Below, one piece after another: positions 4,677 to 8,135 of a DNA stretch of 64,000 nt; positions within the stretch are counted from its first letter, which is position 1; every line of letters begins with the position of its first letter. The translations under genes were made by a program, and so were the position numbers. A model generated the notes under the pieces. It worked only from the letters and a program-made list of their open reading frames with translations. It was not told where the DNA came from and did not search any database. This DNA is from Mesorhizobium sp. (GTDB lineage Bacteria > Pseudomonadota > Alphaproteobacteria > Rhizobiales > Rhizobiaceae), in contig SAQE01000004.1 in assembly GCA_004020545.1 (NCBI GenBank), forward strand, positions 160,500 through 224,499, written 5' to 3'.

Positions 4677-4720
4677 GCAATTCCAGGAAAAGTGCGCAGC
4701 GGGTTTCCGTTCGGAATTGC
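4677..4720. repeat. RIME-like palindrome (copy 2)
   Basis: GCAATTCC...GGAATTGC arms enclose GGAAAAGTGCGCAGCGGGTT-type inner sequence. It is intact and stands 14 bases before copy 3 in tandem, which the transposon split. Confidence 0.9.
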
Positions 4721-4733
4721 GTCAAGATAAAGA

Positions 4734-4751
4734 GCAATTCCAGGAAAAGTG
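4734..4751. repeat. RIME-like palindrome (copy 3), left half, interrupted by a transposon
   Basis: GCAATTCCAGGAAAAGTG is the left half of the palindrome. Its last 8 bases, GAAAAGTG (4744-4751), are repeated at 8051-8058 on the other side of the insertion. Joining 4751 to 8059 restores an element matching copy 2. Confidence 0.92.
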
Positions 4752-4778
4752 CGCTATTCGGTAGCAACCGCCACCAGA
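4752..4778 (+). repeat. Left terminal inverted repeat of the transposon
   Basis: 27 bases identical to the reverse complement of 8024-8050. Homology stops sharply on both sides (4751/8051 and 4779/8023 do not pair). Confidence 0.95.
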
Positions 4779-4802
4779 TCAAGCTTGTCGCGTTGACCGC
4801 TG

Positions 4803-6032
4803 TCAGCGGAACGATAGGGGTCTCGGATCGGGTATAGTCAATTCGGCATCGGTGAACAGATTCGGGAAGAGCCTCTCGCGATAGTCCAGCGGGAAAGCAA
4901 TGCGGACAGGAGCTTTGGGCGTTTCGGACTTTAGGAAGCCTTGTCTAACCATTGCTGACATCGTGTTCCGTGCCGTTCTTTCCGATGTCTTGAGAACGAG
5001 ATGAACATCACCGCGCTCGAGTGATCCGTGTTTGAGGACTGCCGCTAAGAGATCGGGCGCGCGTTTGTCTTCGCTTATGTCCTTGACGAGTAAGCGGTAC
5101 CGATCTTCCAGGCGACCAAGGTCGAAAATCGCTGTGGAGAAGCGTATTTGATCGAGTGCCACGGTAAGGAACCACTCGCAAAAGTCCTTGAGAGCTGCTT
5201 CCGAGAGATTGCCTCGGCCATCGAGATCCCCGCGACGAGGGCTGTCTGCGTGGTCCATCATCCGTTTGTATTCGCCTCGATCCTTGAGACCGCGGGCCAG
5301 GCCTCTTGAAATCGACCACAAGCCATGTCCCCCGATGCCTGCTTTCAGCGCCATCGCGTGTGACATCAACCGGGACACACGGCCGTTGCCGTCAGGGAAC
5401 GGGTGGATGTAGTTGAAACGGTGGTGAGCGGAAGCGATGGCAATGATACGGGTGCTCGCCCATTTTTCCGCTACTCCAAAACGCTTCGAGAAGTGCGCCA
5501 TGAAGGTCTCGACCCAATCTGAAGAGGGGGGCTGATGTCTTCCGACAACCACGTCGTCGCTCGCAGTCTTTCTGAACTCACCGGGAACGATCTCGACCTT
5601 CGATCCATCTGGTCGTTCCATGAACCTGAACTCTGCGGGCATCTCGTGATAGAACATGCGGTGAACCCAAGCGATGAACTCAACCGATGTCGGGCTCGGC
5701 AAATCTCCTTGGGAGTACATCTCATCGATTTTGCGCTGAACGATAACGTGCGCCTTGGCCTCGAGCGCTAGGGCTCGCCGTTCAGGTTCGACCTCCGCAC
5801 CGGCGAGTGCCTTTTCGATGTCCTTGGGACGCGTGTTGTGACCCTCGATGAGGTTCGAGTAGTAGCAATTCATCATCCGAACCAAGTCGGCGAGTTCCGC
5901 AGCCGATTCTGAATGGAGGCCGCGCCCCAAATTGTCTGCCTCCCTCTGCAGTTCTACCGTGAGGTCTGCTAAGACGGACGGGATGGTGTCCTGGAAAAAG
6001 CAGGGCTCGATACGAGCAGGCGTTTCAAGCAT
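4803..6032 (-). CDS. Fic-domain protein (class II, N-terminal inhibitory helix)
   Basis: The protein has 409 residues. The Fic motif HPFPDGNGR is complete, with the catalytic His and the DGNGR phosphate-binding loop, so it should transfer a nucleotide monophosphate (usually AMP from ATP) to a protein hydroxyl. Upstream, SNLIEG fits the (S/T)xxxE(G/N) inhibitory-helix motif that makes class II Fic proteins autoinhibited. The C-terminal ~100 residues resemble a winged helix (TARNTMSAMVRQGFLKSE). It is the passenger nearest the left end of the transposon. It is visibly less GC-rich than the transposase, suggesting separate origin. No partner antitoxin gene is next to it. Target and role (regulator, defence, toxin) are unknown. 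Confidence 0.9.
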   Translation of the reverse strand: MLETPARIEPCFFQDTIPSVLADLTVELQREADNLGRGLHSESAAELADLVRMMNCYYSNLIEGHNTRPKDIEKALAGAEVEPERRALALEAKAHVIVQRKIDEMYSQGDLPSPTSVEFIAWVHRMFYHEMPAEFRFMERPDGSKVEIVPGEFRKTASDDVVVGRHQPPSSDWVETFMAHFSKRFGVAEKWASTRIIAIASAHHRFNYIHPFPDGNGRVSRLMSHAMALKAGIGGHGLWSISRGLARGLKDRGEYKRMMDHADSPRRGDLDGRGNLSEAALKDFCEWFLTVALDQIRFSTAIFDLGRLEDRYRLLVKDISEDKRAPDLLAAVLKHGSLERGDVHLVLKTSERTARNTMSAMVRQGFLKSETPKAPVRIAFPLDYRERLFPNLFTDAELTIPDPRPLSFR

Positions 6033-6478
6033 TTTTTGCCGATCCTAAAAGATGCCAATTTCCTTTTATATAAGTCACTTACGTCAGCAATAGGCAACGG
6101 GTTGCCGATTATTGTTGCCGATCTTCGTTGCCGCATCGCAGTGTACGCCGCAGGAGTGGGGCGAGGCCTAAGCGATGCCCTGCGATCTCGATACGGTAAA
6201 TCGTTCCCCAGTTATCTAAATTACAAGAATCCGATCGACTCCTGAAACGAGATCCGCTAAGGGCCCGCCTCATGTTCAGGCGGACACGCATACGGCGCTG
6301 ATTTCGACGGCCTTCCGAGGCCGCAGCATCGCCACGCGTATCGACGACTGCCAGCCCTGGAGCCTGAACATGAACACTCGCGCCTCTAATTCCCCCACGC
6401 CCCGCCTGACTCCGAGGATTCTGGAGCGTCCGTGGTTGGATAATATCCACCACGATCCCGACAACCGCACGCGGGGGT
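6033..6478. other. Divergent regulatory region inside the transposon
   Basis: This 446-base stretch separates the fic start from the transposase start and holds no convincing gene. The part next to fic (6040-6130) is AT-rich and carries three 13-base-spaced repeats (6101-6139). Around 6265-6283 CCGCCT...AGGCGG forms a small hairpin. Promoters for both directions should lie here, but I could not place -35/-10 boxes with confidence. Confidence 0.6.
6101..6139. repeat. Three iteron-like direct repeats upstream of fic
   Basis: GTTGCCG starts at 6101, 6114 and 6127, an exact 13-base period; the first two units share GTTGCCGAT. They lie 69-107 bases upstream of the fic start codon, a position suited to a regulator-binding array. 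The Fic winged-helix part or the small HTH-like gene at 7519-7974 are possible binders (inference). Confidence 0.6.
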
Positions 6479-7515
6479 GTGAAATACCAGGACGGCCAGC
6501 ACTTCCTGATGTCCCCGGAATGCCGGGACATGCCGATCCAGCACCTCGTCCAGATCGGCGAAGAGGAAGCCTACGCGACCTTCTGCCAGTTCCGCTGGCC
6601 TAAGACCCAGGGCGAGCCCGTCTGCCCGTATTGCGGCGTTCTCGACTGCTACGCGCTCCGCAGGCGCGCGTTCAAGTGCTCCGGCTGCCGCCGCGAGTTC
6701 TCCGTCACCTGCGGCACTGTGTTCGCCTTCCACAAGCTCAGCTTCTGGAAGATGCTGGCGCGATCTGGATGTCGGTGAACGCCGTCAAGGGCAAGGCCGC
6801 GCTGCATCTCTCCCGCGAGCTCGGCGTGCAGTACAAGACTGCCTGGGTCCCGTCGCTGAAGATCAAGGAAGCCCTGGCTGCGCCGCGTCGGCATGAAGCT
6901 CGAGGGCCAAGTCCAGATGGACGGCAAGTACGCGGGCGGCCACATCAAGCCGGAGAACAAGGCCGCGGAGCGGATCGATCGCCGCCTGAAGAAGTACCAG
7001 AACATGAAGCGGCTCTGCGTGCTCGCGCTGCGCGAGAAGAACGGCAGCGGCTTCGATCGCACCTTCACGCGCATCGTCCGCGAGGAGCAGGGCGAGGCCG
7101 CCTGGGCGACAGTCCGCGACCATGTCAGCCGGTACGCGACCGTCGTCACCGACGAGCACCCCAGCTATGCCGACCTGGCCGGCCTCAACGAGCACAGGCA
7201 GGTGAACCACTCGGAGGCCTACCAAACGGAGGACGGCTCGAACACGAACCACGTCGAGAGCGCTTCTTCTCGCGCATCCAGCGGGCCTATGTCGGCATCC
7301 ACCACCGCTTCTCGCTGAAGTACTTCGACTATTACGTCGCCGACCTCGCCTGGCGCGAGGACAATCGCCGGAAGAGCAACGGGCAGCTGACTGCGCTGGT
7401 CCTGTTCGCCGCGATGCTGAACCCAACCTCGAGGAACTTCTGCGGCTACTGGCAGGGGAACAGCCCGCCCGATCCCGACTTCGAGGACTTCGACAGGCCG
7501 TTCGCGCCCGACTGA
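6479..7515 (+). pseudogene. IS1595-family (ISXO2-like) transposase, frameshifted
   Basis: The transposase is spread over alternating frames. From GTG 6479 one frame gives the N-terminal zinc ribbon (CPYCG...FKCSGCRREFSVTCGT). It shifts near 6760 (apparently one base lost), back near 6885, and again near 7258. The middle frame has the ISXO2 DDE core (VQMDGKYAGG, VTDEHPSY, NHSEAYQTEDGSNTNHVE). The last gives FFSRIQRAYVGIHHRFSLKY...LVLFAAMLNPTS. Reassembled length is about 340 residues, normal for the family. Three shifts mean it is inactive, or else the assembly has indels here. Confidence 0.9.
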
Positions 7516-7518
7516 GCG

Positions 7519-7974
7519 TCAGGCCGCGATCTCCCACTGACGGCTATGGCCGTCCAGCATCCCGGCGTGGCGGACGCGCCCGGCCTTCTGGAGAGCATCG
7601 AGGATCGACGACAGGCGGTTGCCGATGAGGGCGACCCGGGGGTCATCTCCGGAAAGGCCGTGCCTTGTCGCGAATTCCTGCGCGCATTCGGCGGTCGACA
7701 GCGGCCGCCTGGCGGTCCGCAGGATCTCGATCGTCATCTGTCGCTTGTTCGTCCCGCCGATAAGCTTGTCGAGCTCCTTCGCGCTCATGGCCATCGGCGG
7801 ACGGCCGCGGCGCTTTTTCGGCTGCTCGTCCGGCTTCCATTCCGGTTCGTAGATCGAGGTCACCTTGTCGACGGCCGCGATCTGCGCCTGCAGCTCGGCA
7901 AGCGCCGCCGCCAGCTCGCGGGCACGCCCTGCCAGCTCGCATCGCTTGGCCTTCAGTTCCTCTGGTACACCCAT
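7519..7974 (-). CDS. Small coiled-coil/winged-helix protein, transposon passenger
   Basis: The gene encodes 151 residues. Residues ~1-40 are an Ala/Glu-rich predicted coiled coil. Residues ~50-62 are basic with RRGRPP, an AT-hook-like core. Residues ~75-150 look like a winged helix (KRQMTIEILRTARRPLSTAECAQEFATRHG...RLSSILDALQKAGRVRHAG). It is convergent with the transposase, with 3 bases between the stops, and ends about 50 bases inside the right inverted repeat. It is probably a DNA-binding accessory or regulator of the element. I know no named family; function is inferred from shape and position only. Confidence 0.72.
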   Translation of the reverse strand: MGVPEELKAKRCELAGRARELAAALAELQAQIAAVDKVTSIYEPEWKPDEQPKKRRGRPPMAMSAKELDKLIGGTNKRQMTIEILRTARRPLSTAECAQEFATRHGLSGDDPRVALIGNRLSSILDALQKAGRVRHAGMLDGHSRQWEIAA

Positions 7975-8023
7975 CTCGCCCCTGAAATCCTGCTTTCAGA
8001 GGTACCAGATCAAGGATTAAACT

Positions 8024-8050
8024 TCTGGTGGCGGTTGCTACCGAATAGCG
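8024..8050 (-). repeat. Right terminal inverted repeat of the transposon
   Basis: 27 bases that are the exact reverse complement of 4752-4778, followed directly by the second copy of the target duplication GAAAAGTG. Confidence 0.95.
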
Positions 8051-8135
8051 GAAAAGTGCGCAGCGGTTTTTCGTCCGGAATTGCGCAAAACAATACTGAG
8101 CGGTTCAGCAATTCTATCAAAAGGGTGAACCGCTC
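8051..8135. repeat. RIME-like palindrome (copy 3), right half plus second stem
   Basis: This continues the element begun at 4734: the right arm GGAATTGC is at 8077-8084. A second stem follows: GAGCGGTTCA (8098-8107) pairs with TGAACCGCTC (8126-8135). This shows the repeat is a two-hairpin unit, as in copy 4 at 43423-43513. Confidence 0.85.

What the first reader, a model, noticed from the sequence alone, without database searches (positions are those of the whole stretch)
4744..8058. Fic-carrying IS1595-type transposon in a reconstructable target
Perfect 27-bp inverted repeats, an 8-bp duplication GAAAAGTG and restoration of an intact palindrome when 4751 is joined to 8059 define the element to the base. 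Inside are a Fic protein, a small DNA-binding-like protein and a transposase. Passenger genes are known in IS1595 elements, but I know of no described one that moves a class II Fic protein. A mobile, self-inhibited AMP-transferase could act as an addiction or defence module.
Basis: partly seen in the sequence, partly recalled or inferred. Interest (0 to 1): 0.85.

Follow-up and report, generated by a model that had tools for sequence, protein, structure and literature searches.

The report
Dead jumping gene carrying Fic toxin
A worn-out jumping gene in a Mesorhizobium genome still carries an intact, apparently self-restrained Fic toxin-like gene, and its relatives carry other toxin-antitoxin or defence genes, so this small transposon type looks like a carrier for addiction and defence genes.

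Summary
The element is real: perfect 27-bp ends (4752-4778, 8024-8050), an 8-bp duplication, and nothing inserted in 7 of 7 related loci. One correction: its IS1595-family transposase is broken by three small indels, so it cannot now move by itself. The 409-aa Fic protein is intact, has active-site and N-terminal self-inhibition motifs, and shows purifying selection (dN/dS 0.06-0.15). Fic at least 95% identical lies with such ends at four other sites, and a remnant at a fifth; of 59 fic loci from a genome scan, 52 show no such end. On plasmids fic lies by repABC in 7 of 13 neighbourhoods read. The 151-aa protein belongs to a family present in 46 of 51 related elements. In the window's branch, cargo starts at a fixed border upstream of the transposase and is exchangeable. 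Across the wider set, relatives carry other Fic/Doc proteins, HipBA, Panacea antitoxins, ParE, methylases or an anti-phage dCTP deaminase: toxin-antitoxin- or defence-type genes in 20 of 51 elements. IS1595 passengers are known; this cargo pattern was not seen in the papers searched. Addiction or defence is inferred, not shown.

The parts
4744..4751 (.). target-site duplication, left copy (8 bp)
   Evidence: identical to 8051-8058
4752..4778 (+). terminal inverted repeat, distal (cargo) end
   Evidence: 27/27 complementary to 8024-8050; a copy with 0-7 mismatches follows fic in L036, L037, L038, L056, L070, L093
4779..6214 (.). cargo slot: filled by fic here, by unrelated genes in related cores
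   Evidence: DNA similarity with L232, L167, L171 and L178 ends at element positions 1826-1836 counted from the partner end, that is window 6215-6225
4803..6032 (-). fic passenger, 409 aa, intact; HPFPDGNGR active-site motif and N-terminal SNLIEG inhibitory motif
   Evidence: PF02661, 46.9 bits, cut-off 24; SNLIEG invariant in 21 of 21 aligned sequences; GNGR changed in one, L039; dN/dS 0.057-0.151
6232..6244 (-). conserved block CAGGAGTCGATCG (on the minus strand) just inside the core/cargo border
   Evidence: at most one mismatch about 200-280 bp upstream of the transposase in L233, L236, L237, L239, L241, L309
6479..7515 (+). IS1595-family transposase, pseudogene (zinc ribbon and DDE domain, pieces in two frames)
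   Evidence: PF12760 and PF12762 above cut-off on the pieces; NF033547 below its cut-off; three small indels against intact L231
7519..7974 (-). 151-aa partner protein (coiled-coil-like start, winged-helix-like end, judged by eye), convergent with the transposase
   Evidence: 22 of 394 family genomes; transposase in 15 of 20 loci fetched; family in 46 of 51 elements
8024..8050 (-). terminal inverted repeat, partner end
8051..8058 (.). target-site duplication, right copy
4679..4720 (+). unbroken sibling of the palindromic repeat that was the target

Best explanation
This is a degenerate transposon of the IS1595 family (a 'transporter IS') that jumped into a palindromic intergenic repeat in this Mesorhizobium lineage carrying fic as its only evident passenger, and lost its transposase to small indels. 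It belongs to a branch, found widely in its order, whose core is end - partner gene - transposase. In the part of the branch nearest the window the cargo slot begins at a fixed border upstream of the transposase; in the more distant part cargo also lies between transposase and partner. Cargo is often of toxin-antitoxin or defence type. The Fic comes from a lineage that on some alphaproteobacterial plasmids sits beside repABC. It most likely acts as a one-gene toxin-antitoxin: an AMP-transferase held off by its own N-terminal inhibitory helix, so that carriers of the element persist (addiction) or stop growing under attack (defence). Shown: ends, duplication, broken transposase, intact fic with both motifs, purifying selection, five unrelated sites plus one with a remnant, exchangeable cargo, border, repABC neighbours of some relatives. 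Inferred: AMP transfer, toxicity, self-inhibition, and the addiction benefit (about 0.4; defence about 0.2).
For: Ends and duplication; element absent at 7 of 7 related loci. Fic at least 95% identical in 7 of 146 genus genomes. The copies lie at sites with no flank similarity to one another, except L036, L037 and L070, which share one site (one flank only for L056/L166 and L093/L157). Transposase pseudogene while fic is intact, dN/dS 0.057-0.151 in 14 of 15 pairs, the fifteenth pair being identical. Motifs. Partner family in 46 of 51 elements. Cores 85-91% identical with unrelated cargo in L236, L239, L240, L241 and L242. Toxin-antitoxin- or defence-type cargo in 20 of 51 elements (L276 by eye). 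Fic beside or one gene from repABC in 7 of 13 plasmid neighbourhoods.
Against: Six of 13 plasmid fic genes are not beside repABC, the 13 were picked by me, and several of the seven share the same neighbours and are probably related replicons. Most of the 51 elements (31) have no cargo that I could class as toxin-antitoxin or defence (LysR regulator, ATPase, inositol phosphatase, unknowns). The flank controls are partial or biased. The dN/dS includes time spent in active elements, so it does not prove selection after the transposase died. One copy (L039) has a changed active-site motif and one (L093/L157) a broken fic, so retention is not universal.
Confidence: 0.72

Rival explanations
1. Neutral hitch-hiker: fic was caught between the ends by chance, is an ordinary chromosomal or plasmid gene, and gives the element nothing.
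For: Cargo of the branch is diverse and often has no link to addiction; one copy has a mutated motif (L039) and one a broken fic (L157).
Against: Fic stays open with low dN/dS while the transposase decays; two further Fic/Doc types (L235, L282) lie inside such elements and a 70% relative of the L235 type lies beside an end in L180.
Confidence: 0.25
2. Regulatory Fic: the protein AMPylates a cellular target in normal physiology and the transposon merely spread it.
For: The layout (N-terminal inhibitory motif, Fic core, winged-helix-like C-terminal region by eye) resembles widespread Fic regulators; weak matches to the SoFic model and to FICD structures.
Against: Patchy distribution (34 of 394 family genomes at E 1e-20) and plasmid/repABC context of some relatives fit a mobile maintenance module better.
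Confidence: 0.2
3. Anti-phage defence cargo: fic acts by abortive infection.
For: Other elements of the branch carry defence-type genes: an anti-phage dCTP deaminase model at E 1.5e-128 (deaminase domain in L294), a methylase and a protein with PADLOC candidate-defence hits (L286, L280).
Against: The fic itself was not scanned against PADLOC, and repABC adjacency of relatives points to replicon maintenance.
Confidence: 0.2

Closest known systems
IS1595 family of insertion sequences, including 'transporter IS' members (Siguier et al. 2009, recalled and seen only as a citation; ISNha5 with a transcription-regulator passenger, passage in PMC11891212)
   Same: Zinc ribbon plus ISXO2-like DDE transposase, terminal inverted repeats, 8-bp duplication, passenger genes allowed
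   Different: Passenger is a class II-type Fic; a convergent partner gene whose family is in 46 of 51 elements; a fixed cargo border in the nearest branch; toxin-antitoxin- or defence-type cargo in 20 of 51. Whether ISfinder already holds such members could not be checked
Toxin-antitoxin-bearing Tn3-family transposons (PMC7157771, passages read)
   Same: Transposons that repeatedly acquired different toxin-antitoxin modules (ParE, PIN, HEPN and others)
   Different: Unrelated transposase; in Tn3 the pair lies close to the resolution site, here beyond a border upstream of the transposase or between transposase and partner gene
Tn7-like transposons with defence cargo (PMC8649781, search listing only)
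   Same: Transposons that collect defence genes
   Different: Unrelated transposition machinery (recalled); here elements of 1.3-7.6 kb
Class II Fic proteins (SoFic model NF046030, FICD structures such as 4u04 and 9yz5)
   Same: Fic core motif and N-terminal inhibitory motif
   Different: Match far below the SoFic equivalog cut-off (24.6 bits against 550); a distinct, mainly alphaproteobacterial lineage in the searches made here

Membership tests
IS1595 family | transposase zinc ribbon (PF12760) and ISXO2-like DDE domain (PF12762) | tested here: met
   on the separate pieces, above the Pfam cut-offs; NF033547 matched below its cut-off
IS1595 family | 8-bp target duplication and terminal inverted repeats | tested here: met
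   in 50 of 51 relatives the duplication is 8/8, though the search itself required at least 7/8
IS1595 family | uninterrupted transposase | tested here: not met
   frameshifts, so a decayed member; 42 of 49 relatives with a transposase have an ORF of 300 aa or more
IS1595 family | ISfinder subgroup | not testable with these tools
   ISfinder is not available
class II Fic protein | HxFx(D/E)GNGRxxR core motif (motif recalled) | tested here: met
class II Fic protein | (S/T)xxxE(G/N) inhibitory motif N-terminal to the core (motif recalled) | tested here: met
   S59-G64, invariant in 21 of 21
class II Fic protein | AMP transfer held off by the inhibitory helix | not testable with these tools
   needs a bench assay; structure prediction switched off
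toxin-antitoxin / plasmid maintenance module | toxicity and neutralisation | not testable with these tools
   no assay
toxin-antitoxin / plasmid maintenance module | position beside replication or partition genes in relatives | tested here: inconclusive
   7 of 13 plasmid neighbourhoods; 13 of 208 records read, picked by me, some of them related replicons
Tn3-family toxin-antitoxin transposon | Tn3 transposase | tested here: not met
   Pfam on five ORFs of the element found IS1595 domains and no Tn3 family

The most novel reading that the evidence does not exclude
A whole branch of IS1595-type transposons, widespread in this bacterial order, works as small swap-in carriers of addiction and defence modules: a conserved core (end, partner gene, transposase) plus exchangeable cargo, in the nearest branch with a fixed border block and inverted pair that may serve as the exchange point, so that the same kind of ends move Fic, Doc, HipBA, AbiEii, nucleotidyltransferase/HEPN-like, Panacea, ParE or anti-phage genes, and leave transposase-free toxin-antitoxin cassettes behind.
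Probability: 0.5. Interest if true: 0.75.

Novelty: new variant of a known kind. Interest (0 to 1): 0.62.

Why it matters
It would show that toxin-antitoxin and defence genes are shuffled by transposons of only 1-8 kb, parallel to what is reported for Tn3 and Tn7. The precise ends, duplications and cargo border give a ready test bed for how insertion sequences gain and exchange passengers, and for whether a toxin-like cargo helps a dying transposon persist. The Fic lineage found beside repABC is a testable candidate for a single-gene plasmid maintenance module.

Tried and rejected
Intact mobile element: rejected, the transposase is frameshifted. Fic as a fixed part of this IS: rejected, related cores carry other cargo or none evident. 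All close fic genes in IS1595 elements: rejected, 52 of 59 genome-contig loci show no such end beside fic (some loci are cut by contig ends), and transposase or partner matches were found only in L036-L039 and L070, besides a 26%-identity match in L062. Border block shared by the whole set: rejected; with at most one mismatch it lies at the expected place in the window and in 6 of the 15 other elements of its branch (three more, L234, L242 and L308, with two mismatches), and a one-mismatch copy in L268 lies at another place. Fold comparison: not possible, tool switched off.

Controls for cargo enrichment. From 181 cargo ORFs of at least 100 aa I removed 44 by hand, chosen as partner genes, leaving 137; the flank set is 137 of a random 181 of 418. 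Flank ORFs gave no toxin-antitoxin Pfam family among the 25 shown of 157, but rarer ones may be hidden. PADLOC matched 156 families in cargo and 63 in flanks, 25 shown each; the flank ones include reverse-transcriptase and other defence-like models, so flanks are not free of defence genes. A phmmer count with 12 toxin-antitoxin queries found 0 of 2293 flank ORFs, but 11 queries came from the elements themselves and the twelfth is the window Fic, so this is biased. Enrichment is indicated, not proven. In the count of 20, L276 is by eye (one search counts one C5 methylase without naming the member), L281 is below and L263 at the Pfam cut-off, L174 rests on similarity to L263, and L267 and L283 rest on M78 proteins alone. 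L304 as a Panacea carrier is inferred and left out.

Dropped rows: of 44 loci, 9 gave no acceptable end pair (L277, L278, L279, L284, L285, L290, L296, L300, L307). Of 49 loci, the window and 16 others were kept; L036, L038, L039 and L070 failed because their ends are eroded or lost. Not fetched: two partner hits (G108, G341) and two transposase hits (G396, G516).
Full report
Observation. The element spans 4752-8050 with perfect 27-bp inverted repeats and an 8-bp duplication, GAAAAGTG, on both sides. Joining 4751 to 8059 restores an imperfect palindromic repeat of which an unbroken sibling lies 57 bp to the left. Of 12 genomes searched with the right-hand flanking gene, 8 matched, one of them the window's own; in the 7 others the flanking genes follow each other closely, with no element, no fic and no palindromic repeat between them. 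These loci show the place without the element, not the exact target.

Contents. The Fic protein (4803-6032, minus strand) is intact, 409 aa, PF02661. The transposase carries PF12760 and PF12762, but only on separate pieces in two frames, with three small indels against an intact relative, L231, at 92.7% DNA identity. The 151-aa protein has no Pfam or NCBIfam match.

Does fic travel with these ends? Of 146 genus genomes, 34 have a fic match (E 1e-10 or better) and 7 have one at least 95% identical. In genome contigs, 59 loci encode relatives. Seven show such an end: in L036, L037, L038, L056, L070 and L093 it follows fic or its remnant by about 24-28 nt, with 0-7 mismatches; in L039 that end is lost and only the partner end remains. 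Comparison of 1.5-kb flanks shows one shared site for L036, L037 and L070, and no similarity among the window, that site, L038, L039, L056/L166 and L093/L157, the last two with only one flank to compare. L093/L157 holds a diverged, broken fic, so there are five unrelated sites with fic at least 95% identical and one with a remnant. L038 shows an 8-bp duplication if one base of its end is counted as deleted (read by eye). The transposase is broken or largely deleted in L036, L037, L070, L038 and L039. Fic dN/dS between copies is 0.057-0.151 in 14 of 15 pairs; the fifteenth pair is identical. Against this, L039 has a changed active-site motif and L157 a broken fic.

The branch. Relatives of the 151-aa protein occur in 22 of 394 family genomes; of 20 loci fetched, 15 hold an IS1595 transposase. 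A script that sought ends with at least 7 of 8 duplicated bases gave 16 elements besides the window and, from a transposase search of 367 order genomes (32 with a match at E 1e-60), seven genus loci and four plasmid loci, 35 more. Of these 51 elements, 1.26-7.61 kb long, 50 have identical 8-bp duplications, 46 carry a partner-family gene, 28 carry a DUF6471-type gene, and 42 of the 49 with a transposase have an ORF of at least 300 aa.

Exchangeable cargo. L236, L239, L240, L241 and L242 have cores 85-91% identical over about 1.8 kb (in L241 in pieces, around extra DNA), then unrelated cargo; in 4 of the 10 pairs the last 45-125 bp are similar again. The window's similarity to L232, L167, L171 and L178 ends at element positions 1826-1836 (window 6215-6225); L231 runs to the end of its contig. 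Near that border stand an inverted pair (ATGTTCAGG and its complement, roughly 100 bp apart, in most of 11 aligned sequences) and the block CAGGAGTCGATCG, at 6232-6244 in the window. With at most one mismatch and about 200-280 bp from the transposase the block occurs in the window, L233, L236, L237, L239, L241 and L309 (6 of the 15 other elements of that branch), and with two mismatches in L234, L242 and L308; in the more distant branch only L268 has a one-mismatch copy, at another place.

Cargo types. Pfam or phmmer evidence gives: another Fic in L235 and HipBA in L237; Panacea antitoxins in L257 and L258, L268 and L293, L274 and L297; a nucleotidyltransferase at the Pfam cut-off plus a HEPN-like partner (by eye) in L263, with similar genes in L174; M78 proteins in L267, L283 and L293, counted as antitoxin-type because NCBIfam matched three members to a repressor/antitoxin family; Doc in L282, ParE in L301, a HigA-like HTH protein in L302 and a weak RelE in L281. 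Defence-type genes are a C5 methylase in L276 (by eye; one search counts one), a protein with PADLOC candidate-defence hits in L280, a methylase in L286 and a deaminase in L294, matching the anti-phage dCTP deaminase model that one cargo member hit. That makes 20 of 51; the other 31 carry cargo I could not class so (LysR regulator, ATPase, inositol phosphatase, unknowns) or none evident. Outside the 51: AbiEii beside an end in L171 and a ParD between two ends without duplication in L177; a 70% relative of the L235 Fic beside an end in L180; and in the window's own genome a 1258-bp cassette with eroded ends and no transposase holding a nucleotidyltransferase/HEPN-like pair, with the same 12-base flanks, by eye, in L174 and L185.

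Controls. Among 137 cargo ORFs, the ten Pfam families hit by two or more members include Panacea (6), M78 (3), KilA-N (2) and Fic (2); among 137 flank ORFs none of the 18 families hit by two or more is of this kind (25 families shown of 58 and of 157). PADLOC matched 156 families in cargo and 63 in flanks, so flanks also hold defence-like genes. The phmmer count (0 of 2293 flank ORFs) is biased by its queries. Enrichment is indicated, not proven.

Function. The Fic core motif and the inhibitory motif SNLIEG are present, the latter in 21 of 21 aligned sequences (motif definitions recalled), which fits a class II, self-inhibited AMP-transferase. On plasmids, 208 of 72,556 records hold a relative at E 1e-50. 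Of 13 neighbourhoods that I picked (48-78% identical), fic lies next to or one gene from repABC, or its repC at the record's edge, in 7 (L323, L324, L325, L327, L328, L330, L332), all of them among the nine with at least 71.6% identity; several share the same neighbours and are probably related replicons. In L331, L334 and L335 a VapBC, AbiE or ParDE pair lies nearby; L326, L329 and L333 show neither. This is where a maintenance module would sit, and I infer that the transposon picked up such a module. Toxicity, AMP transfer and benefit are untested.

Literature. Searches for IS1595 with passenger genes, Fic, toxin-antitoxin, subgroup names, cargo and defence, and for Fic with repABC listed no title or abstract start on toxin-antitoxin or Fic cargo in IS1595 elements; three lists were capped (25 of 141, 15 of 249, 12 of 1116), and the five papers holding both Fic and IS1595 were not opened. 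Read as passages: PMC7371123, PMC11092175, PMC7986276 (transporter IS), PMC11891212 (ISNha5 carries a regulator) and PMC7157771 (toxin-antitoxin pairs in Tn3). PMC8649781 was seen as a listing only. Siguier et al. 2009 was seen only as a citation and ISfinder was not available, so novelty is limited to what was searched.

Noticed in passing
L186 7171-8428 (window's own genome, C11 from 71170); similar in L174 and L185: Transposase-free 1.26-kb cassette with IS1595-type, partly eroded ends holding a nucleotidyltransferase and HEPN-like pair, apparently at one site in three Mesorhizobium genomes.
   Followed up: partly
L294 3954-5657: A deaminase, probably the cargo member that matched the anti-phage dCTP deaminase model, inside an IS1595-type element with 8-bp duplication.
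   Followed up: partly
28 of 51 elements, e.g. L268 5759-5986: A small DUF6471-type gene sits upstream of the transposase in the second branch, in some followed by a roughly 290-aa protein.
   Followed up: no
L305 7149-8009, L299 4594-5448, L291 8351-9208, L275 4963-5796: One uncharacterised cargo protein of about 285 aa recurs in four elements.
   Followed up: no
L280, L289, L301: Three elements in different genomes share the same 8-bp duplication sequence, hinting at target preference.
   Followed up: no
plasmid loci L323, L324, L325, L327, L328, L330, L332: The fic lineage lies next to or one gene from repABC (or repC), a candidate single-gene plasmid maintenance module.
   Followed up: partly
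L039 6001-7224: A 95% identical fic copy with a changed GNGR active-site motif and a lost distal end.
   Followed up: no
window 43432: A further copy of the palindromic repeat that was the transposon's target.
   Followed up: no
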